This document shows positions 2,341 to 63,804 of a stretch of DNA of 64,000 nucleotides, piece by piece. Numbering within the stretch: the first letter of the stretch is position 1; every line of letters starts with the position of its first letter. The notes under the pieces were generated by a model. It worked only from the letters and a program-made list of their open reading frames with translations. It made no database searches and was not told the DNA's origin. The DNA is from Phorcus lineatus (lineage: Eukaryota; Mollusca; Gastropoda; Trochida; Trochidae): contig OV121097.1 of the NCBI GenBank assembly GCA_921293015.1, positions 13,517,940 through 13,581,939 of the forward strand, given 5' to 3'. A program made the position numbers and the translations under genes.

Positions 2341-3993
2341 CTTTGACTTGACTTCAAATTTCTGAAATGGGTCGATAACTAACTGAATTACGGTCTTTAA
2401 ACATCATGCCTAATTGTCATCAGCGAGCAGACTGTCAATGGGTCTTGTTGTCACTGAAGCGTATCTCCCTTCTCATACTTCATAGGAGTAACCTCGTTAA
2501 ATCTACTGATAATTTTTCAACGTCTATTTGCGTATATGATTTATTGTTAAGATAATATAAATGGCACCACAGTGTATAGGTTTACTGTAATTCTTAGCGA
2601 TGTTAAGATTTTCGTCACAAACTCACTTAACATTTTCCGACCTGATTAAATGGGTAAACTTTTTACAAAATATGTAATATATAACGTTCATTCAATAAAA
2701 TCCTTTATTGTAACAATATGAAATATCACTTATATACAGGTACGTATTGAATATGTTATAGATACATCCTAGGAAAACGAAACTTCGATTCATGAGATCC
2801 CAATTTATCTTTTGTGGATGATATCCTAACCTAATGTTAACCTAACAAAATAGACATTTAATTATGTCGTTTAGGCCGTCTCACGACACGACCAGCTGTG
2901 CTTCAATGATTTTTCAAAACCGCTTGCCTTTCTAAATTCCAGCGTATTTTTAAAACAGGCGACAGGTTTAAAAGGCGAATAAAAGTCTAATTTAAATGTA
3001 CGCTCGATTTTATGCCCATTTCATTCCGATAACTTATATTCTATTTTCTGTTAACTCTTAAAAATAAAACATTACTCTTATCTTTGAAAGTATTTTAAAG
3101 TTTGTGTTGAGGATGCTCTCGGGATTAGAACTTGGGACTTCTGGATACAAAACAAACCTCCAGAAAATGTCATTCAAACCACTCAGCTTTAAGTTGACTA
3201 AGCAGTACATATGCACGTTGAATTAATTGTACTTCAAAATTATTAAAGTGAATCTGGGCCTCCTTTCACAATGCCTTCCGGTGATAGTTAGTCCATAAGG
3301 TAAACTTAGTGCAATGTTAAAGCATGGGAGTTAAGGTTAACCTTATTAAGGTTGCTTAGTAAAGTTAATCAGTGCTAACCTGAGAACCTGAAATACAATA
3401 TAGTGAGCTTTTTAACTCTGACATCTCTTGTTCCATGTGAGAAGCGTTTTATCAGTAGTCACCACAGAAGATCTGATGATCATTCTTCTGTGTTCATTCT
3501 TATATCCATAAGAGAATGAATATTATTTTTTTCAGGAATTTTATATGAGGTATTGGCAATTCGAAAGATTATGATTTAATTAAGCATCTTACCATAAATT
3601 TCCCTCTGACGTTATTTTTTATCGAACCACATTAAAAGTGTTTCATATCTAAGATGTGTATAAAGTAATTGTGTTGCAATCCTTACATCAATTTGAATAA
3701 ATCCTTTGGTGTGCATACTCCTGAAATTACGAATAAGCAGAAGCATATATCATACAAAGAGTTTTGAAAGAGGAAGATGTTATTCTTTGCTAACATTTTG
3801 GTCCCTTTTCTCTTTCATATAAAATGTTAGTTTTCCCCTTTGTTTTAATTGACTTTTGTGTTAAATTCAAATGTAATTAACACAGTTAAACGTAGTTTGA
3901 TTTGACATTATCTTCTCACCTTACTTTAATCATTCAATGGCTTCAAAGCATAATCAACGAAAGTCATGTCCATAGTGTTGTTTTCAAAACAAG

Positions 3994-4543
3994 TGTCATA
4001 GCGTAACTGTTTATATATAATTTTCTGTTTCATGATAAATACTCAGTGAAGTGTCTCAAGTAGGCAGGGTTCAAACCATCCCCTTGCCACGCTCCCAGTG
4101 AAGTGGCTTATGTCGGAAGGGATCAAAGCGTCCCCTCGCCACGCTAATCAGAGCACGTCGGCAGGGATCAAAGCATCCCCTCGCCACGCTAATCAGAGCC
4201 CGATGCAGTAATTGAATGGCCGCTGTTCTCCGGACTTGCCATATTGCAACAGTTTCAAACTGACATCTGGTGTGTAGTTTTAATGTTAAATGACCCTATT
4301 GTCCATATTCTATAAAGGCTCGTCCATAGCGTAAACCAGGCAGACAGGCTCGGAGTCGCAGCTACGGCGCGACACAATCCCCGACTTCTCTCGCCTGTGG
4401 ACGCCATTATTGTAAAAGTTCTGGTGAAAACCTCCCGCAGAAAATACAGAAGAAAAACACAAGGTCTTCTTGTTTGTCATCTTTTATAACCGGCTTGCCA
4501 CTTTCATTGGAGAAACATACGTATTGTATTTCAAGTTGTGTTA
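3994..4543 (+). repeat. 5' LTR of the short element
   Basis: This LTR includes an internal set of three or four short imperfect units of about 40 bp. Each unit contains CGGCAGGGATCAAAGC and CCCTCGCCACGCTAATCAGAG-like blocks, at about 4067-4200. A TATA-like TCTATAAAGG lies near 4309-4318. The GC content is higher than the surroundings. Confidence 0.88.
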
Positions 4544-4737
4544 AATTGGTGGAGAATCCGTGTACTTAGCTTTTCTTAAAGTTAAGTGGTATTCCGGTAC
4601 CTGGTGGAGTTCCCCCTTCTGTGAGAAAAGGACGAGGACTTCTTGGAGAAACTACATTCTGTTTCATCACCCCCAGAGAAGAAACTTCTACCTCCGGCAG
4701 AGTCAAGGATCTTCCCGACCAACACAGATGAGCAGAC

Positions 4738-5583
4738 ATGGCAGTCTTCTTCCCATCTCACTGGAGGATGAGACAGACTGCAAGCCGTCAACGTCAGTGG
4801 CAAGACCAACACACTGATCTACACCAGGATCACCGCTGTCGGCGATGTGGTAAGTGGTCTTCTCATCAGGAAGTTGACTGTCATGCTAATTTCAAAAACT
4901 GCTTCTTGTGTGGTCAGGTTGGTCATTTGACTATTTGTTGTTTTGATGCTCCTTTGTATTTTTCACCTTCAAAACCTAGAAATTACCCTACCGTAGGGCA
5001 CAGTTCAATTACAAGTAAGACACCTTCTTCTGGCCATCATGCTTCTGCCGTATATGCTCTTAAAGTCGAAAATCAAAATCAAAATCGAGGCCAACATCAG
5101 AAACTAGAGAAAAATTCATCTCAAAAGCCAAATACTAAATCTTCAAAGAGAAACGAAAGAGATTCACTCCGAAAAACAGACTTCCATGTAAGGAAATATT
5201 TGGCTAGACAATTACCCTTTTCGAACATAGGAATTAGAGCATTTTTCGATTGTGTAACCACCACCGGTCCGCTGTCACATGCCATCAGTAGGTTAACAGA
5301 CAAAGTCTCTTTGCTTGAAGAAGAGAACCAAGAATTAATGCTTGTTAACGAAGCGTTACAGACTGAAAATATGGTAAATATTGAAGTCTCAGAATCTGAA
5401 ATAAAGGTTTTACAAAAACAATTCCAAGATCTTCAGCTAGAAAATTTGGTCCAAAAAGGTGCTTCCATACGGCAGAATCAAGAAATATCAAGACTAAATT
5501 CATATGTAAGAAGTTTAGAATTTAGATGTCAACAATATCAGAATTATTCAAATCCTCACCACAACAATTACCATTGGAGATAA
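4738..5583 (+). CDS. Zinc-knuckle plus coiled-coil protein encoded by the short LTR element
   Basis: The 281-residue ORF occupies most of the space between the LTRs. Near the N terminus are two CCHC zinc knuckles: C34-x2-C37-x5-H43-x4-C48 (one spacer longer than canonical) and C55-x2-C58-x4-H63-x4-C68. Residues 85-145 are polar and low-complexity, rich in Ser, Asn, Gln and Lys. About 184-265 is a predicted coiled coil with E/L/Q heptads. Zinc knuckles of this type bind single-stranded nucleic acid in retroviral-type Gag proteins, so packaging of the element RNA is the likely role (inference). The order, knuckles first and coiled coil after, is the reverse of normal Gag, where capsid precedes nucleocapsid. 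No capsid domain was recognised. I chose the ATG at 4738 because it is the first in this open frame. The true start could differ if translation begins in the leader after the LTR. Confidence 0.75.
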   Translation: MAVFFPSHWRMRQTASRQRQWQDQHTDLHQDHRCRRCGKWSSHQEVDCHANFKNCFLCGQVGHLTICCFDAPLYFSPSKPRNYPTVGHSSITSKTPSSGHHASAVYALKVENQNQNRGQHQKLEKNSSQKPNTKSSKRNERDSLRKTDFHVRKYLARQLPFSNIGIRAFFDCVTTTGPLSHAISRLTDKVSLLEEENQELMLVNEALQTENMVNIEVSESEIKVLQKQFQDLQLENLVQKGASIRQNQEISRLNSYVRSLEFRCQQYQNYSNPHHNNYHWR

Positions 5584-5746
5584 TGCACGACAGTCATAAA
5601 TCTTCTCATGTTGACCACAAACCATGTCCATCCACCCGCTGGCAGATTCCTGATCTAATCTCCCCAACTGTGCTGGACTCAACTCATCTTCAACATATTC
5701 GAATGCACACCACAAACCCCATTAGGAGATTCGAGGACGAGGAATT

Positions 5747-6296
5747 TGTCATAGCGTAACTGTTTATATATAATTTTCTGTTTCATGATAAATACTCAGT
5801 GAAGTGTCTCAAGTCGGCAGGGTTCAAACCATCCCCTTGCCACGCTTCCAGAGAAGTGGCTTATATCGGCAGGGATCAAAGCATCCCCTCGCCACGCTAA
5901 TCAGAGCACGTCGGCAGGGATCAAAGCATCCCCTCGCCACGCTAATCAGAGCCCGATGCAGTAATTGAACGGCCGCTGTTCTCCGGACTTGACATATTGC
6001 AACAGTTTCAAACTGACATCTGGTGTGTAGTTTTAATGTTTAATGACCCTATTGTCCATATTCTATAAAGGCTCGTCCATAGCGTAAACCAGGCAGACAG
6101 GCTCGGAGTCGCAGCTACGGCGCGACACAATCCCCGACTTCTCTCGCCTGTGGACGCCATTATTGTAAAAGTTCTGGTGAAAACCTCCCGCAGAAAATAC
6201 AGAAGAAAAACACAAGGTCTTCTTGTTTGTCATCTTTTATAACCGGCTTGCCACTTTCAGTGGAGAAACATACGTATTGTATTTCAAGCTGTGTTA
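5747..6296 (+). repeat. 3' LTR of the short element
   Basis: This is the same length as the 5' copy and about 98% identical by eye. It is preceded by a purine-rich tract ending GAGGAATT and followed by CAAG, matching the sequence before the 5' LTR. Confidence 0.88.
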
Positions 6297-7349
6297 CAAG
6301 TGTAATAGGCGCGTTTCAGACGCCCAGTGACAGCAGAGTTTTTTCTTATATTGAATTGAGAAGCAAGATGGAGAAATATCAACCTTTATGTGGACTTTGC
6401 GTTGTGTAATGTGATCTTAAGAGTGTGCGGTTGATATGCTTTCAAATGAATTAACTCAGCTTCCAGTCCGAACATCGGGCACAAAGTATTAGAGAAAAGG
6501 ACAAAAGAAACAAGTGAAGAACAACAATATTTTATTACAAAAATGGTAGAAAAATGAAACAAAAACTCAACAGCGAGAAGATAGCACCAGTTGTTAATCA
6601 CACACCTGTACAGCCGTACGATGCATGACAATGTGTAAACCTTTATTTAATACCACCCAAACCTCCCTTTTTTAAGAATCCTACAAGATTATAATTATCC
6701 CATAACTAATAACTAACTCCTAATCTATTTCCTATACTAATTCTCCCCCGACCCGCCTTAACAATAAACTAAGTACCAAAAAAAAAATCCCGTAATCAAC
6801 CTAACATGCTAAAGGGGTAGGTGGATCCTGAGACAGGACCTGTCGGGACGATGGAATGCTACCTGTCTATATAGTTGCTCGGAACCCCGAGAGTGAGACA
6901 ACTGAACCCGAGAAGCCAGGTCACTTATATACTGCTCTGAGACGACCTCTGACACGGGTCAGAGTTCAGCCACTGACAGCAGACGTCTCCGCCAATAAGT
7001 GCCTACTAATACATAACAAGCGCAACGCCGCACACATTACCCAGAAAGAAGTTATCTCGTACCGCAGACAGTGAAACAATGGGCTACAAGACTAACCAGT
7101 GAACCAATTATCCCCCTCCACTAGGTTCGTACTGTTAATATTTCTATCCTAATTGAAAACCCTAACCCCCATTTACGTTCTTTTATCCCCGTTTTCCTAC
7201 ACAAGCATAGAACACAATCTCATCACAGGTTATCTGTTCATGTTCATTTCCTTGCAAAGTAACTAAGGAAAAGAGGTTGAATATGATATAATGCTATCAT
7301 TCAGTTGGGATACATATTGTAGAAGTAGCCTCTGAATACCATCACACTA
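6297..7349. other. No recognisable gene; GC-richer block at 6,800-7,130
   Basis: Translations here match no family I know. The block at about 6,800-7,130 is clearly GC-richer than its surroundings and could be the remains of a mobile element, but it has no terminal repeats or motifs I can name. Confidence 0.5.
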
Positions 7350-13297: not shown

Positions 13298-14150
13298 CTA
13301 GGAGGAAATGTCCCGAAGATAGGCCCTGGTGAAGACGCTAGAGGACTTCCACTGGCATGAAGCGACTATTTGGTCGATGGAAACAGACTTCCATGCTGCT
13401 AGAGAAGTCGAGAGCGCTCGAATCTCATGAGGCGAGAACTTGACATCTGCTGTCTCTTGATCTGCTGTAGAATAGGCCAAGACGATGGTCTTATGAAGCC
13501 AAGAAGCATTGGTATTATTGGTAATTTCTGTCGACAGGCCCGGTTTGCAGGGAATAAAGAGACGTCTTCTACCTTCCCTGATGGAATGCGTCCTATCCAT
13601 GTACCAACGTAAAGCTCGCACCAGGCAGAAAGTACGCGCTTTGTTTTTTGCGTCATTAGGCACAGGGAGAGCCGGAAAGGAATAAACCCTGGCCCCCAAG
13701 GGACCAGTGGCCGTTGACTGATTTTTTGCAATAAATTCTGGCAAGGCTCCAAACGACACTGACGTATATCTATGAGCAAAACAATGGAGGATATATCTAT
13801 TGCATGTATCTCGGAGACTCTTGTGGCCGAGGCAAAGGCAATCAAAAAAGCTGTTTTCCATGCGAGGAACTTGAGAGAAGTGGTACACAAGGGTTCGTAT
13901 GGAGCACGTTGCAAGGATTGCAGTACTAATAGAAGGTCCCATTTGGGGAAAATATTTGGCGTTTTAATGTCCTGAAGCTTGGACAACTTTGTTAGCTTAG
14001 CGAGAGTAACGTCCAAGCCGATAGCTAGACAATCGAGATCTGTGACTGAGACGATCGCCAATCTATAGCCTTCAATTGTGCTTGGCCACACCTCTGTTTC
14101 TTCTCCACTGCTCGAACTTGATCCACTTATGGTCGTAGAGTGCAGACGTG
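13298..14150 (-). pseudogene. Tyrosine recombinase region of the younger DIRS-like element
   Basis: The minus-strand frames show the N-terminal SAM-like part (S-T-I-E-G-Y-R-L-A, near 14,080), the catalytic core with R-V-S-E-I (near 13.8 kb), the H-E-I-R box (near 13,430) and a C-terminal W-K-S-S-S-V-F-T-R-A-Y block (near 13,340) carrying the nucleophilic tyrosine position. Together these define the Arg-His-x-x-Arg-Tyr fold used by DIRS elements to integrate circular DNA. It sits directly upstream of the terminal repeat structure, the standard DIRS order. Confidence 0.82.
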
Positions 14151-14228
14151 GAAGGTCTGATGGATCTTGAAATAGCGTCAGAAGTTGGCTGCGCATAACC
14201 GCGTTCTCGCAGCGTTCATTGGATATTT

Positions 14229-14640
14229 TCATATGTGCAGATTGAATGCCTGGAGGTTTACGTTGTCCGGTTGCCACCTCGGCTGTTGGAGCAGATTCCA
14301 CCACAGAGGAAGTTTTAACGGTGGTTCCATGAGAAGATCGATCATCGATGGAAACCACGACCTCTTGGGCCACGCCCGAGCTACCAGATACACGATGCAA
14401 TTGTGTTGCCTCACATTGTTGAGAACATCTGGAATCAACTTGAATGGAGGAAAGGCGTAGGCTATGAGATTGTCCCAGGACATTGACAGCGCGTCCACTG
14501 TCAGAGCCTTGGGATCCGGAACCGGGCTCAAGTAACAAGGGAATCTGAAATTTAGTGCTGTCGCAAACAGATCTACTTGAGGCTTCTCCCATCTGTCGGC
14601 GATCAGATTCAAAACTTGAGGACACAATCAAATGTTCCCT
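14229..14640 (-). pseudogene. DIRS-specific domain between RNase H and recombinase
   Basis: One open frame of 132 codons contains V-D-L-F-A-T, D-A-L-S-M-S-W and A-Y-A-F-P-P-F-K-L-I-P, a signature found after RNase H in DIRS-type and some Pao/Gypsy-like pol proteins. It is thought to derive from a methyltransferase-like fold in DIRS elements; function here is not inferred further. Confidence 0.75.
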
Positions 14641-16350
14641 GGACAGAGAGTCCGCTAGGAAGTTCAGTTTCCCGGGAATGTGCCTGGCTTGAAGAGTTAT
14701 GAACCATGCGTCTACCAGAGCGAAAAGATCCCTGGTGAGTTGCATCAGAGGAGCTGATCTCGTGCCTCCTAACTTGTTGTTATACGCAACCACAGTGGAG
14801 TTGTCCGTTGCAATCCAACACTTGAAGCATGGAGTAGATCTTTCCAGTTGGAGAGAGCCAAGATCACCGCCTTCATCTCGAGCAAATTGATGTGAAGATG
14901 GGAATCCGATTGGACCCACGGCCCGCTTAAATGTCCTGATTCCAATGTGCACCCAATCCCGCTTTCGATGCATCTGTGTAGATCGTGTGTTGAGGCGGAG
15001 GAAGAATAAATAGGCATCCTGACATGACGTGCGTGCGCAAGGTCGACCACTGAAGTTCCCGACAAACCAGGTTCGTTGTCACACTCTTGGAGTCCAGAGG
15101 GAGATGACGGCATCTGTTGATCCAAGATTGAATGTGGCACAGGTTTAGCCGACCGCGTGTGGTGAAGGCCTGAACCAACCTAAGAAAACCCACCAGAGAC
15201 ATCCATCTCCTGAGAGAATGTTTCTGCTGGTATCCATTAGAAGTTGGATTGAAGACTGTATCGTTGTCCAACAGGTCTCCGATGGAGCAATGGTTGAGGT
15301 TGTCGAATCCAACATGGCTCCAAAGAACTTGATCTGAAAGGACGGGTTGAACTCCGCCTTGTCTGGATGAATAATCCAGCCAAAGTGGGTGAAAACATGA
15401 CTGGCCAGCCTCAGGTGGTATCGGAGGGTAGATTGATCCTGATGACGTAGCAAAAAATTGTCTAGGTACCCGTGAATGAGCACGTAATTTAAGTGAAGGA
15501 ACTGGAGAACCGGGGCTGTGACTTTGGTGAACAGCCATGGGGCAATGGAGATCCCGAAAGGAAGCACCTTGAGTTGGAACCGGCGGTTGTTGAGGGCAAA
15601 ACGAAGGAACTTCGGGGATTTGAAATGAATGGGGACATGTAAGTATGCATCCTTCAAGTCGAGGCTGGCAAACAAGGACTGTGGAAGAATCAGTTTGCGG
15701 ATGTTGTTGAGGGATTCCATAGAGAACTTGGGAGGTCTGCTTAGGAATGATTTGTTGAGCACTTTTAGATCTATAATCATTCTTATTTCTACTGTGTCCT
15801 TCTTTGGCAGAAGAAAAACGGGAGAGTAAAAGCCTGGCGAAACGTCGGCGGAATCCAACTCCGTAATGGCGTCCTTCTCCAAGCGTTGCTCGATGGCAGT
15901 AAGAGCGGCTTGTAACTTGGGCCCTTGAAGGAAGAATCTTTCCCCTTGAGGATGGATGGTAACTGGCGGAATTCGATCCCACTGAAGGATGTAGCCTCTG
16001 CCGATGATCGACGGACACTGTTTCCCAAGGAATCGACCCGGACGGCCCCCCAAGGCTGAATGGAAGGTTGGCTGAGGGAAGGGAATTGTCAATGATATGT
16101 CGAGGAACGGAAGAGGTCGTAAGGGTTCGGTCTGAGAAGGGGAAGTGGCGTGGCAGTCATCGCCTATAGCCACCTCTGGATCCACGAAAAGTTCTCTTCT
16201 TATCCTTCCCTGATGGCATTGGAGGCTCCTCAGGATGAGGGGGATGGAAACCCCGACGGCACCGATGTCCGCCCCGGACCTGAGAGGTTGGTTGAGGCAG
16301 TGAATACGAAGGCTTGTTCTGAGGATTCGGTTTAGGGTTTGAGTTCCCAC
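14640..16350 (-). pseudogene. Reverse transcriptase and RNase H region of the younger DIRS-like element
   Basis: A 401-codon frame (15,145-16,350) holds RT motifs in order: G-F-Y-S-P-V-F-L-L-P-K-K, the I-D-L-K-V-L-N palm strand, S-L-D-L-K-D-A-Y-L-H-V-P (motif A), L-P-F-G-I-S-I-A-P-W (motif B) and the G-Y-L-D box (motif C). The RNase H start T-D-A-S-K-A-G-L-G-A-H-W is at about 14,950-14,985. The RNase H end with H-I-P-G-K-L-N-F-L-A-D-S-L-S is near 14,650-14,700. The L-K-D-A-Y-L-H-V-P and F-G-I-S-I-A-P-W wording is diagnostic for DIRS-like RT. It acts on the element RNA in the cytoplasm or nucleus to give circular cDNA (family knowledge). Confidence 0.88.
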
Positions 16351-17640
16351 GACGATGTCCCTGGAAAGAACCTCTAGATATCAAGGCTTGAGTGAGCTTT
16401 TGATTGAGGGCCTTAGTAGTCATAGAATCCTGCGATTCGCTAGCCTGAGTGCATGCTCCATTATAGAGAGACGGTGCTTGAAATGGTTGAGTTAAGATAG
16501 AGCCCTTAACATCTGTTGGTAGATCCCGAACTCGCGAGATATGCTGTTGCCAATTTGCTGAAAGCTTTGAAGGGATTAGGAGCCCTGGTTGAAACCCCCT
16601 TTCCCCCGAAAAGGCTGCTGGCCCTGAGGCTGCTTGCCCTTCCTGTTCTTGCCTTTCTTCCCTGGATAGCCTCCCTTGCCAGAGCCCTGATGGAGCAATG
16701 TGTTCCACCATTGCTTGACTTTGTCCTTGACTCTTGCGCGTCTCCAGCCGTTTGGCGAAGTCCTTGATGACTGTCACCGATCCTGGGAACAGGGTTTGAC
16801 CCAGTTCATACGGGAAGGGGAGCAGTGAATTCTGAGTCGGCTGCGGGAGTGACGAGCAACTCAGCCACAGCCTCCGCCGGCACATCAAGAAATCCCACCG
16901 CCCCTATAGGGTACCTCCTTTTGAGTTTGGATAAATCAAATCTTGTGTGGGTACCCGACAGGAAAGGCAAAATCGCATCAGTGCGGAGACTGTCGACAAT
17001 GCGGAGCCACGTCTGTGCGACCTTGCGCTTAGCAAAGGCCCCCACCGGGAAGATTGAACTCGGTCGCATCAATCTCCTTCTCCGGAACGACAACCTGAGG
17101 GAAGCAGACCACGAACTTGTCACGCAACCCCCTCAAGGCCTCGGAAATTGGGAGATCGGTAGGATCCGACTTCACGCCCCCACCGACCTCCATCACCTCC
17201 TCTGAGCAGCAGTGCCCGAGTCCCGACTCTTGGGTTTGCTGGTTCCCCCCGACCTCTCGACGGTCTCGAGATTATTCGGTAATGGTGCTGGAAGGGATCC
17301 GGCTAGGACCAGCCCTCAACCCCGGCAAGCTCAAGTCATCATCCGAGCCCCTGCCCAGGTTAGCTCGGTACCAACCACAGCCCTGAAGAACCCAGTCGGT
17401 CTGGCATCCAGACCCTGCGGGGGAACTGACGCCCGAATCTCCTTCCGGAGCTCAGACATTAGCTCCCCCATCAGGCCCTTCCGCTTCCCTTCACGTCAAC
17501 AGCAACAGAAGAATCTTGGAAGAAGCGGAGGGGAGATGGAGGCCTGTTCAGTAGTTTCGATTACCGGCCAGCATTGGGAGCGCAGGAGAGCACGCTCAGT
17601 AGATAGACTTAGCTTGTGCGCTGAGCGCTGACATTACATT
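16157..17640 (-). pseudogene. Gag-like region of the younger DIRS-like element
   Basis: Three minus-strand frames (about 17,466 down to 16,157) give a basic, Gln/Pro/Ser-rich protein with no zinc knuckle, as usual for DIRS ORF1. Visible landmarks are L-M-S-E-L-R-K-E-I-R near 17,450, A-W-x-R-I-V-D-S-type and I-L-P-F-L-S-G motifs near 16.95 kb, and the Q-P-F-Q-A-P-S-L-Y block near 16.47 kb. Its 3' part overlaps the RT frame. The whole region is present a second time at 19.0-20.5 kb because of the tandem duplication. Confidence 0.65.
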
Positions 17641-18032
17641 ACATGACTACTTGACGATTCTTTGAAAACAACGTGGGTTGTTACAAAAAAAATTTATTAT
17701 TATTTTCAAATGAGTTTTTACACGTTTATCGACATTTATACCAGAAAATAATATAATTTGCTCAATATGACAATTGTAGGAAAATCAAATTCCACATTAA
17801 AATCAAATTCCACATTAAAACATGCCAACTATTTTGTATTTCCAACATTGTCATATGGTTCATTTTTTGCTACAGCTATGTTCATTGGTCATTCGATATG
17901 CAGTGACATTGCCTAAACTTTTCTTTGACATTCCATCTGTAATAAAGTGAGGAATATCCTCAATTACGGAAATTTATCAACTGATAATTACTTATTATAA
18001 GCAATAACAACATCATCAGTATAATTTTTGTC

Positions 18033-18360
18033 TTGGTATAACTATAAGAGATGTTTCAAATGTCACAGTAGTTAGGATACACACATAAGTGAACACACTT
18101 CTAGGATGCAGCAGTAGAAGGAAAAGATTCAGTTTAAGATTAGACGAATGTGAAAACAAGAACTTACCTTTTGGTTTTGCAACCCTAATAATATTCGTCT
18201 TGGTATAATTATAAGAGATGTTTCAAATCACATAGTGGATAGGCTACACACATAAGTGAACAAACTTCTAGGATGCAGCAGTAGAGGGCATAAATTCAGT
18301 TTAAAATTAGACGGATGTGATAACGAGAACTTACCTTTTGGTTTGGCAACCCCAGGAGAT
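18033..18360 (+). repeat. Internal ~165-bp direct repeat with minus-strand splice-donor motifs (again at 20,912-21,239)
   Basis: The block from CTTGGTATAA to TTACCTTTTGGTTT occurs twice in tandem within each 2,879-bp unit. Each copy contains GAACTTACCTTTTGG, whose complement is an optimal 5' splice site (AAAAG|GTAAGTTC). Before the outer donor the minus strand reads open for about 30 codons (near 18,355-18,440). This could be a leader exon of a minus-strand transcript feeding the DIRS-like element, or an unrelated exon. I cannot name it. Confidence 0.6.
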
Positions 18361-21300
18361 TCTTGAGAACGTATGAAACGTGTGGCTGGATGTTTCCAAA
18401 TGTTCCAATACAGTCGGAAATTTTGTTTTATAGTGATAGGTGAAACGGAAAATACAACTATAACATAAATTCACCACTGAATCTTAACATACTCAATTTT
18501 CATTAGCTGATGTTGAAAATCAATAGATCACTTAACCACGAAGCCAAGTATGAATGGTTGGTTAGACGCTAGGGGGCGGTAATCAAACGTCAAGAATAGT
18601 TTGATTCAGCTGTGGACCAAATGATTGATGTTCAGTTCTTTTGAGTATACTGAAAATGATAAATGAGGGTACTGTATCCAGACTTAAGAAATTAAAACGG
18701 GAGAGTAAAAGCCTGGCGAAACGTCGGCGGAATCCAACTCCGTAATGGCGTCCTTCTCCAAGCGTTGCTCGATGGCAGTAAGAGCGGCTTGTAACTTGGG
18801 CCCTTGAAGGAAGAATCTTTCCCCTTGAGGATGGATGGTAACTGGCGGAATTCGATCCCACTGAAGGATGTAGCCTCTGCCGATGATCGACGGACACTGT
18901 TTCCCAAGGAATCGACCCGGACGGCCCCCCAAGGCTGAATGGAAGGTTGGCTGAGGGAAGGGAATTGTCAATGATATGTCGAGGAACGGAAGAGGTCGTA
19001 AGGGTTCGGTCTGAGAAGGGGAAGTGGCGTGGCAGTCATCGCCTATAGCCACCTCTGGATCCACGAAAAGTTCTCTTCTTATCCTTCCCTGATGGCATTG
19101 GAGGCTCCTCAGGATGAGGGGGATGGAAACCCCGACGGCACCGATGTCCGCCCCGGACCTGAGAGGTTGGTTGAGGCAGTGAATACGAAGGCTTGTTCTG
19201 AGGATTCGGTTTAGGGTTTGAGTTCCCACGACGATGTCCCTGGAAAGAACCTCTAGATATCAAGGCTTGAGTGAGCTTTTGATTGAGGGCCTTAGTAGTC
19301 ATAGAATCCTGCGATTCGCTAGCCTGAGTGCATGCTCCATTATAGAGAGACGGTGCTTGAAATGGTTGAGTTAAGATAGAGCCCTTAACATCTGTTGGTA
19401 GATCCCGAACTCGCGAGATATGCTGTTGCCAATTTGCTGAAAGCTTTGAAGGGATTAGGAGCCCTGGTTGAAACCCCCTTTCCCCCGAAAAGGCTGCTGG
19501 CCCTGAGGCTGCTTGCCCTTCCTGTTCTTGCCTTTCTTCCCTGGATAGCCTCCCTTGCCAGAGCCCTGATGGAGCAATGTGTTCCACCATTGCTTGACTT
19601 TGTCCTTGACTCTTGCGCGTCTCCAGCCGTTTGGCGAAGTCCTTGATGACTGTCACCGATCCTGGGAACAGGGTTTGACCCAGTTCATACGGGAAGGGGA
19701 GCAGTGAATTCTGAGTCGGCTGCGGGAGTGACGAGCAACTCAGCCACAGCCTCCGCCGGCACATCAAGAAATCCCACCGCCCCTATAGGGTACCTCCTTT
19801 TGAGTTTGGATAAATCAAATCTTGTGTGGGTACCCGACAGGAAAGGCAAAATCGCATCAGTGCGGAGACTGTCGACAATGCGGAGCCACGTCTGTGCGAC
19901 CTTGCGCTTAGCAAAGGCCCCCACCGGGAAGATTGAACTCGGTCGCATGAATCTCCTTCTCCGGAACGACAACCTGAGGGAAGCAGACCACGAACTTGTC
20001 ACGCAACCCCCTCAAGGCCTCGGAAATTGGGAGATCGGTAGGATCCGACTTCACGCCCCCACCGACCTCCATCACCTCCTCTGAGCAGCAGTGCCCGAGT
20101 CCCGACTCTTGGGTTTGCTGGTTCCCCCCGACCTCTCGACGGTCTCGAGATTATTCGGTAATGGTGCTGGAAGGGATCCGGCTAGGACCAGCCCTCAACC
20201 CCGGCAAGCTCAAGTCATCATCCGAGCACCTGCCCAGGTTAGCTCGGTACCAACCACAGCCCTGAAGAACCCAGTCGGTCTGGCATCCAGACCCTGCGGG
20301 GGAACTGACGCCCGAATCTCCTTCCGGAGCTCAGACATTAGCTCCCCCATCAGGCCCTTCCGCTTCCCTTCACGTCAACAGCAACAGAAGAATCTTGGAA
20401 GAAGCGGAGGGGAGATGGAGGCCTGTTCAGTAGTTTCGATTACCGGCCAGCATTGGGAGCGCAGGAGAGCACGCTCAGTAGATAGACTTAGCTTGTGCGC
20501 TGAGCGCTGACATTACATTACATGACTACTTGACGATTCTTTGAAAACAACGTGGGTTGTTACAAAAAAAATTTATTATTATTTTCAAATGAGTTTTTAC
20601 ACGTTTATCGACATTTATACCAGAAAATAATATAATTTGCTCAATATGACAATTGTAGGAAAATCAAATTCCACATTAAAATCAAATTCCACATTAAAAC
20701 ATGCCAACTATTTTGTATTTCCAACATTGTCATATGGTTCATTTTTTGCTACAGCTATGTTCATTGGTCATTCGATATGCAGTGACATTGCCTAAACTTT
20801 TCTTTGACATTCCATCTGTAATAAAGTGAGGAATATCCTCAATTACGGAAATTTATCAACTGATAATTACTTATTATAAGCAATAACAACATCATCAGTA
20901 TAATTTTTGTCTTGGTATAACTATAAGAGATGTTTCAAATGTCACAGTAGTTAGGATACACACATAAGTGAACACACTTCTAGGATGCAGCAGTAGAAGG
21001 AAAAGATTCAGTTTAAGATTAGACGAATGTGAAAACAAGAACTTACCTTTTGGTTTTGCAACCCTAATAATATTCGTCTTGGTATAATTATAAGAGATGT
21101 TTCAAATCACATAGTGGATAGGCTACACACATAAGTGAACAAACTTCTAGGATGCAGCAGTAGAGGGCATAAATTCAGTTTAAAATTAGACGGATGTGAT
21201 AACGAGAACTTACCTTTTGGTTTGGCAACCCCAGGAGATTCTTGAGAACGTATGAAACGTGTGGCTGGATGTTTCCAAATGTTCCAATACAGTCGGAAAT

Positions 21301-62550: not shown

Positions 62551-62814
62551 AAGAAGTTTTTGTAAGTACTATCACGCTTAAGAAACCAATAACATACCTA
62601 CAGCAATTACCGTTAAAGGGGCTGTAGCTAGTTGTTTAAGTTTAAAAAGTTGATCTCACTAACCCAAAAATAAACGTTTTCGAATGGGAGATACATGTCA
62701 AGAAACAGTTTCGAAAATACGATGGTCGGTAAAGTTATGCGAATCCATTTAGCATTACAAATGATTAAAAAGTGTCCACATACAAAACTTCCGCCTGTGG
62801 TTTTTGTTTGATAA

Positions 62815-63490
62815 TAAATAATTTCCTCCACTACAGATGATCGTCGTGAGTAATGAGAGGTTGTGATTTGCTGAAAAATAATAAATAATTTCCTCTACTA
62901 CGAATGGTCGCTGTGAGTAATGAGATGTTTTGATTGGCTAAAAAACAATAAATAATTTCCTCTACTACGGATGATCGTCGTGAGTAATGAGAGGTTGTGA
63001 TTGGCTGAAAAATAATAAATAATTTCCTCTACTACGAATGGTCGCTGTGAGTAATGAGATGTTTTGATTGGCTGAAAAACAATAAATAATTTCCTCTACT
63101 AGGATGATCGCTGTGAGTAATGAGATGTTTTGATTTGCTGAAAAACAATAAATAATTTCCTCTACTATGAATGGTCGCTGTGAGTAATGAGATGTTTTGA
63201 TTGGCTGAAAAACAATGAATAATTTCCTCTACTACGAATGGTCGCTGTGAGTAATGAGATGTTTTGATTGGCTGAAAAACAATAAATAATTTCCTCTACT
63301 ACGAATGGTCGCTGTGAGTAATGAGATGTTTTGATTGGCTGAAAAACAATAAATAATTTCCTCTTCTACGGATGATCGCTGTGAGTAATGAGATGTTTTG
63401 ATTGGCTGAACAATAATAGATAATTTCCTCTACTACGGATGATCGCTTTGAGTAATGAGATGTTTTGATTGGCTGAACAATAATAAATTT
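62815..63490 (+). repeat. Minisatellite, 67-bp unit, 10 copies
   Basis: The unit is AATAAATAATTTCCTCTACT, ACGAATGGTCGCTGTGAGTA, ATGAGATGTTTTGATTGGCT and GAAAAAC. Copies recur every 67 bp from 62,823 with two alternating subtypes at the left end (GATGATCGTCGTGAG against GAATGGTCGCTGTGAG). Each unit keeps GATTGGCTG, an inverted CCAAT box. Confidence 0.93.
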
Positions 63491-63804
63491 GGCATAAAGT
63501 AATTATAATTATTGGGGAAGGATGCCACAATGCCTTGAATAAAAAAAGATCACAAGTTAACACCATGGTACATTCAACAACTTAAAAAACAATTTAAACA
63601 ATGAAAATAATCAACATTATATATATATATATATATATTAAAAACATTAGAAGATCGTTACTAAAACAGCCACCTTTCAGAAGTAGTAGGACGTTTAAGT
63701 AAATAACTTGATCTTAATTAACGAAAATGAAGGTTATGAATTAAGACAAATACATTTTTCTGTTAGATTATGTAAATTCATTTCCCTTGAACAGATGATT
63801 TAAA

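What the first reader, a model, noticed from the sequence alone, without database searches (positions are those of the whole stretch)
3994..6296. Small, young LTR element whose only ORF puts zinc knuckles before a coiled coil
The LTRs are equal in length and about 2% apart, and the single ORF is open, so this is a recent, probably still mobilised element without pol. Its protein has two CCHC knuckles at residues 34-68 and a C-terminal coiled coil. This is the reverse of Gag order, and no capsid domain was recognised. It may be an undescribed non-autonomous family that keeps a dedicated RNA-binding protein.
Basis: partly seen in the sequence, partly recalled or inferred. Interest (0 to 1): 0.72.

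Follow-up and report, generated by a model that had tools for sequence, protein, structure and literature searches.

The report
Capsid-less satellite of a gypsy retroelement
A small jumping gene in a eukaryotic genome has no copying enzymes but keeps one selected protein with RNA-binding-type zinc knuckles and a coiled coil, and its own chimeric insertions point to the larger virus-like gypsy element that probably copies it.

Summary
In detail: a 2.3-kb LTR element with 550-bp LTRs (11 differences), target duplication CAAG, and one 281-aa ORF with two CCHC knuckles before a long predicted helix. No capsid was recognised. The family is recently active: 7 of 17 LTR pairs have no substitutions, and this copy is the most diverged. 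The ORF is open in 15 of 16 copies that retain it whole; omega is about 0.5, and knuckle pN/pS 0.17. A distant relative shares the motif KTDFHxRKYLARQLPF.

Two chimeric insertions with outer target duplications join this family to related Ty3/gypsy elements, one of them with env. The exact LTR-end/primer-site junction occurs seven times in 958 Mb: four copies of this family, three gypsy. Best reading: a satellite copied in trans by that gypsy, keeping a nucleocapsid-like, coiled-coil protein without capsid. Against: most copies carry another primer site, and the 5' LTR ends differ. The protein's role is inferred. The nearest published parallel, RLG_Quinta/RLG_Cereba in wheat, keeps a recognisable GAG. 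New variant of a known kind.

The parts
3990..3993 (.). target site duplication, left (CAAG)
3994..4543 (+). 5' LTR, 550 bp, TGTCATAG...GTGTTA; TATAAAG at 4311-4317 (sequence reading)
4547..4558 (+). primer binding site TGGTGGAGAATC; looks like tRNA-Ala (recalled, not tested)
4738..5583 (+). 281-aa ORF: CCHC knuckles (34-68), basic linker, conserved motif 145-161, coiled coil
4837..4941 (+). two CCHC zinc knuckles; pN/pS 0.17 in this part; nucleocapsid-like
5170..5220 (+). motif RKTDFHxRKYLARQLPF, shared with distant relative L056
5266..5547 (+). predicted long helix / coiled coil, residues 177-270
5709..5746 (+). purine-rich end before the 3' LTR; other copies read here have a hairpin sequence with AGGA loop (folded in L002 only), damaged in this copy
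5747..6296 (+). 3' LTR, 550 bp
6297..6300 (.). target site duplication, right (CAAG)

Best explanation
A semi-autonomous Ty3/gypsy-type satellite. Its RNA is reverse transcribed and integrated by proteins of a chromodomain gypsy group in the same genome, of which at least one member carries env. It retains one protein made of a Gag nucleocapsid-like N-terminal part and a motif-plus-coiled-coil module, with no recognisable capsid. Shown: LTR anatomy, 4-bp target duplications, recent activity, purifying selection on the ORF, chimeric insertions with this gypsy group, and a shared exact LTR-end/primer-site junction found nowhere else in the genome as held. Inferred: the protein oligomerises through its coil, binds its own RNA through the knuckles and basic linker, and favours packaging or reverse transcription of that RNA in the helper's particles.
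For: ORF open in 15 of 16 copies retaining it whole (31 matches, 67 of 67 candidates scored; the 16th, L007, has a frameshift). Codon model on 15 copies and 283 codons: omega 0.50, lnL -2476.5, against -2485.3 for the best of nine runs with omega fixed at 1. Substitution-placing simulation: P <= 0.003 in 13 of 14 pairs; the 14th, L012, has 10 differences and P 0.61. LTR pairs: 7 of 17 without substitutions, two of the seven (L011, L012) with gaps. Exact 4-bp duplications in 14 of 17 (L017 read). Chimera L009: gypsy antisense between LTRs with 0/549 mismatches, duplication GCTT. Chimera at C2 (L011 + L029): LTR-interior-LTR, then gypsy with gag, pol and env, then an inverted LTR identical over 556 nt to the facing one, the whole flanked by GCTG. 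L023 has gypsy sequence abutting the ORF. Junction TGTTAN{0,2}ATTGGTGGAGAATC, no mismatch: 7 places, 4 of this family and 3 gypsy (one of them the gypsy inside the C2 chimera); reversed control 0. The gypsy also makes 4-bp duplications at 4 of 4 places examined, and one pair of its LTRs shows no mismatch over about 457 bp compared. Knuckle region against gypsy Gag: shuffle P 0.002 (L029) and 0.008 (L009) with Cys/His fixed.
Against: 12 of 18 copies with a readable primer site carry a different one (TGGTGTTGAACAGAGG) and L007 a hybrid. A second helper or primer is possible; the searches for it did not complete. The exact junction is itself a minority form: 4 of those 18 copies and 3 of 13 gypsy places that span it. 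The 5' LTR ends differ: TGTCATAG against TATCCCCG in the gypsy. The gypsies in L009 and L029 are only 81% alike, and env was seen only in L029. Other gypsy families were not surveyed. The helper's similar pre-LTR hairpin is not significant on its own (z -0.91 and -0.84). Knuckle similarity is weak by search: tblastn E 0.012 against L029 and 0.50 against L009, where a chance coil hit scores slightly better. AlphaFold2 is uninformative for residues 1-176. C-terminal pN/pS is 0.69, the weakest constraint. Copies recombine, which disturbs tree-based omega.
Confidence: 0.58

Rival explanations
1. The protein acts in the helper's particle as a Gag partner or structural supplement (as proposed for RLG_Quinta), helping both elements, not as an RNA-recruiting factor for its own RNA.
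For: Published model for a GAG-keeping partner (PMC11302176, abstract and passages). The coil could join helper Gag (inference).
Against: No capsid domain recognised, so it is unlikely to build shell by itself.
Confidence: 0.2
2. The ORF is an inhibitor or decoy that modulates the helper, for example by competing with its nucleocapsid.
For: Nucleocapsid-like knuckles without a recognised capsid.
Against: Selection on a copied element favours proteins that help its own copying; no direct evidence here.
Confidence: 0.1
3. An ordinary internally deleted element whose ORF is a passenger, young enough to look intact.
For: Many copies are very young.
Against: omega 0.50 with lnL gain 8.8; 13 of 14 simulated pairs P <= 0.003; distant relative within an open frame of 251 aa.
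Confidence: 0.05
4. The chimeras are later nested insertions and say nothing about a helper.
For: Gypsy is a repeat family here (41 matches, 40 of 172 candidates scored).
Against: Outer target duplications; LTRs without mismatch in L009 and identical facing LTRs at C2; joins within a few bases of the end of U5 with the usual primer site absent; no complete pair of gypsy LTRs at either place.
Confidence: 0.12

Closest known systems
RLG_Quinta with RLG_Cereba, wheat (PMC11302176; abstract and passages)
   Same: No pol; one ORF with Gag sequence plus a domain of unknown function; partner named by shared primer site, LTR ends and PPT
   Different: Quinta keeps clear GAG homology; here only a nucleocapsid-like part is recognisable, plus a coiled coil; the 5' LTR ends differ from the helper's; the partner at C2 carries env
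TR-GAG elements (search listing only)
   Same: LTR element coding only a Gag-type protein (recalled)
   Different: No capsid recognised here
TRIMs, including biv-TRIM (PMC6934838, first part of the text and passages) and Helenus (PMC10886601, abstract and one section)
   Same: Non-autonomous; animal Helenus makes 4-bp duplications and is attributed to Gypsy by primer-site similarity
   Different: TRIMs are under 1 kb with 100-250 bp repeats; this is 2.3 kb with 550-bp LTRs and a selected ORF; no tRNA found in the window
Complex elements by template switching, Triticeae (PMC1950507, abstract only)
   Same: Fused elements, two of them sharing an LTR, inserted as one unit
   Different: Here an inverted LTR and an antisense partner occur

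Membership tests
Non-autonomous LTR retrotransposon | Two direct LTRs, primer site, target duplication | tested here: met
Non-autonomous LTR retrotransposon | No pol | tested here: met
   Window copy has one long ORF; ordinary full-length copies are about 2.2-2.3 kb; pol was seen between such LTRs only as gypsy in chimeras
TRIM | Under 1 kb, 100-250 bp repeats | tested here: not met
   2.3 kb, 550 bp; definition from PMC6934838
GAG-keeping partner (Quinta-like) | Recognisable Gag capsid | tested here: not met
   absence of recognition only
GAG-keeping partner (Quinta-like) | Primer site same as the autonomous partner | tested here: inconclusive
   exact in 4 of 18 copies, a different site in 12
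GAG-keeping partner (Quinta-like) | Same LTR ends as partner | tested here: inconclusive
   3' end TGTTA shared, 5' end differs
Ty3/gypsy origin | Nucleocapsid homology | tested here: inconclusive
   BLASTP E 0.008 (L009), tblastn E 0.012 (L029) and 0.50 (L009), shuffle P 0.002 and 0.008
Autonomous element with the same LTR | LTR pair around gag-pol in normal order | tested here: not met
   none (40 of 109 candidates scored)

The most novel reading that the evidence does not exclude
The KTDFHxRKYLARQLPF-plus-coil module defines an old protein family of satellites that dispenses with a capsid altogether. It acts as an RNA-specific ticket into another element's particles, a trans-packaging adaptor that my paper searches did not turn up for LTR elements.
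Probability: 0.3. Interest if true: 0.75.

Novelty: new variant of a known kind. Interest (0 to 1): 0.56.

Why it matters
How a pol-less LTR element secures copying by another's enzymes is often inferred from shared primer sites and LTR ends, as in two of the papers cited (PMC11302176, PMC10886601). Here one genome offers a selected, compact candidate factor, recent copies, and chimeric insertions that record contact with a particular partner. That makes trans-packaging by a satellite-encoded protein a testable question.

Tried and rejected
Pfam, NCBIfam and PDB sequence searches gave no confident family for the ORF; a WTAP hit at E 0.012 was treated as coil similarity. Two scans of viral contigs found no relative. 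Fold libraries were not searched, since only one long helix was modelled with confidence. L009 was first taken for a possible autonomous element with the same LTR; its gypsy genes are antisense to the LTRs. Splicing as the cause of the leader loss in L015 was considered and dropped on the sequence. In one search the stretch named for L013 was misplaced (it is not the pre-LTR region) and its result is not used. The host was not identified. The tRNA-Ala reading of the primer site is recalled and untested. Relatives of L056 in this genome could not be listed, and the match at C2:17362519 (22%, 884-aa frame) was not read. Paper searches: judged by titles and abstract starts; none showed a capsid-less knuckle-plus-coil LTR satellite, which is no proof of absence. 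Papers also opened and not used further: PMC12440569 (abstract), PMC5408684 and PMC3286476 (passages).

Full report
What is there. The window lies in a 958-Mb genome of 74 contigs. The element at 3994-6296 has 550-bp LTRs with 11 mismatches, a CAAG target duplication, a primer site at 4547-4558, one open 281-aa frame and a purine-rich end.

The family. A DNA search gave 60 matches (40 of 94 candidates scored), an LTR search 44 (40 of 109) and an ORF search 31 (67 of 67). I measured 17 loci with two LTRs: 7 have no substitutions (of these L011 has 83 gap bases and L012 one), 3 have one and 3 have two. L022 has 3 over 229 sites, L005 7, L017 8 and the window copy 11, the most. Exact 4-bp duplications were seen in 14 of 17. 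The exceptions are L011, which is part of a larger unit, L013 with none, and L015 with one base different. ATAT is the target in 7 of the 14. The family is therefore recent and mobile, while this copy is older and its pre-LTR hairpin is damaged.

The protein. Fifteen copies keep the frame open; four of them (L003, L005, L006, L010) end in a different, longer tail. A sixteenth, L007, has a frameshift. Window-against-copy dN/dS is 0.41-0.60 over 14 pairs, and pooled pN/pS is 0.55. By alignment segment it is 0.52, 0.17 (knuckles), 0.49, 0.48 and 0.69 (coil and tails). Placing the observed substitutions at random gives more amino-acid changes than seen: P <= 0.003 in 13 of 14 pairs and 0.61 in the closest pair (2000 runs each). 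A codon model gives omega 0.50; the best of nine runs with omega fixed at 1 is 8.8 log units worse. Copies are mosaics, for example a patch in L005, so tree-based values are approximate. AlphaFold2 with 15 sequences shows one helix at 177-270 and nothing confident before 177. The knuckle region resembles the Gag end of the gypsy described below: BLASTP E 0.008 with L009; tblastn E 0.012 with L029, the best hit there, but 0.50 with L009, where another hit has 0.43; shuffles with Cys and His fixed P 0.002 and 0.008. A distant relative at C19:9648141 (L056) shares 25 of 46 residues around RKTDFHxRKYLARQLPF, inside an open frame of 251 aa. Its coil part is little conserved.

The probable helper. 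At L009 the LTRs show 0/549 mismatches with duplication GCTT, but much of the interior is an antisense gypsy with a 1414-aa pol frame and an overlapping chromodomain frame. At C2 a copy (L011) is followed by a gypsy with gag, pol and an interrupted Baculo_F-like env, then by an inverted LTR identical over 556 nt to the facing one. The whole is flanked by GCTG. The two gypsies are 81% alike over 5068 aligned bases; env was seen only at C2. The gypsy at C2 breaks off inside env and ends in an A-rich tract absent from a genomic copy that matches it 99.75% over the 404 bp up to that point. The LTR joins lie within a few bases of the end of U5. At L023 a gypsy piece abuts the ORF; whether that is a chimera is open. 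In one search the two gypsies were compared with all 44 loci then held; keeping hits wholly inside the gypsy parts, only L023 and L025 (part of the C2 unit) matched outside L009 and L029. Such fusions are most simply template switches between RNAs in one particle, as proposed in Triticeae (PMC1950507, abstract read). The gypsy's own LTR ends in GATGTTA, its primer site starts TGGTGGAGAATC, and it makes 4-bp duplications (ATTC, GAAC, GTTT, GTAT). The junction TGTTAN{0,2}ATTGGTGGAGAATC occurs at seven places in the genome. Four are in this family and three in this gypsy (one of these is the gypsy inside the C2 unit), with none for the reversed control.

Against this. Of 18 copies with a readable primer site, 5 carry the TGGTGGAGAATC type (L021 with one difference), 12 another, and L007 a hybrid. 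Likewise only 3 of 13 gypsy places that span the junction match it exactly. Since the primer site is recopied from the primer (established knowledge), two sites point to two primers or two helpers. The 5' LTR ends differ between satellite and gypsy. I did not survey other gypsy families, and the pattern search for the second primer site did not complete.

Mechanism, with steps marked. Shown: recent copying, selection on the protein, contact with the gypsy. Likely: gypsy enzymes copy and integrate it. Inferred: the protein forms coil-based oligomers that bind its RNA by knuckles and basic linker and bring it to, or help it in, the helper particle. I give the whole model 0.58; the non-autonomous, selected-ORF part alone about 0.93, the helper about 0.75, the exact role about 0.4.

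Comparison. RLG_Quinta in wheat is the nearest published case that I found: a pol-less element with GAG and a DUF, partnered with RLG_Cereba (PMC11302176, abstract and passages). It differs in keeping a recognisable GAG. TRIM size criteria are not met. By titles and abstract starts, no listing showed this protein architecture in an LTR satellite.

Noticed in passing
L045 (C25:43655600-43657250): The gypsy's LTR of about 1.48 kb holds a ~1-kb intron-like insert (GTGAGT...TTTCTAG) flanked by a 40-bp repeat; the C2 chimera lacks it, as do some LTR matches by their span.
   Followed up: partly
L029: The gypsy has a Baculo_F-like env and, by reading its pol frame, a chromodomain (Pfam-scored in the related L009); an unusual pairing as far as I recall.
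   Followed up: partly
window 13298-20510: A reverse-transcriptase element (RVT_1) partly duplicated at 2879-bp spacing with 100% identity over the 300 nt reported; DIRS-like by recall only.
   Followed up: no
L010: A copy with LTRs built of repeated partial units and a second partial interior.
   Followed up: no
window 62679-63569: Tandem array with 66-67 bp period, 10 copies in register.
   Followed up: no
L015: Leader missing from the end of the primer site to just before the ORF; ORF open, LTRs without mismatch.
   Followed up: partly
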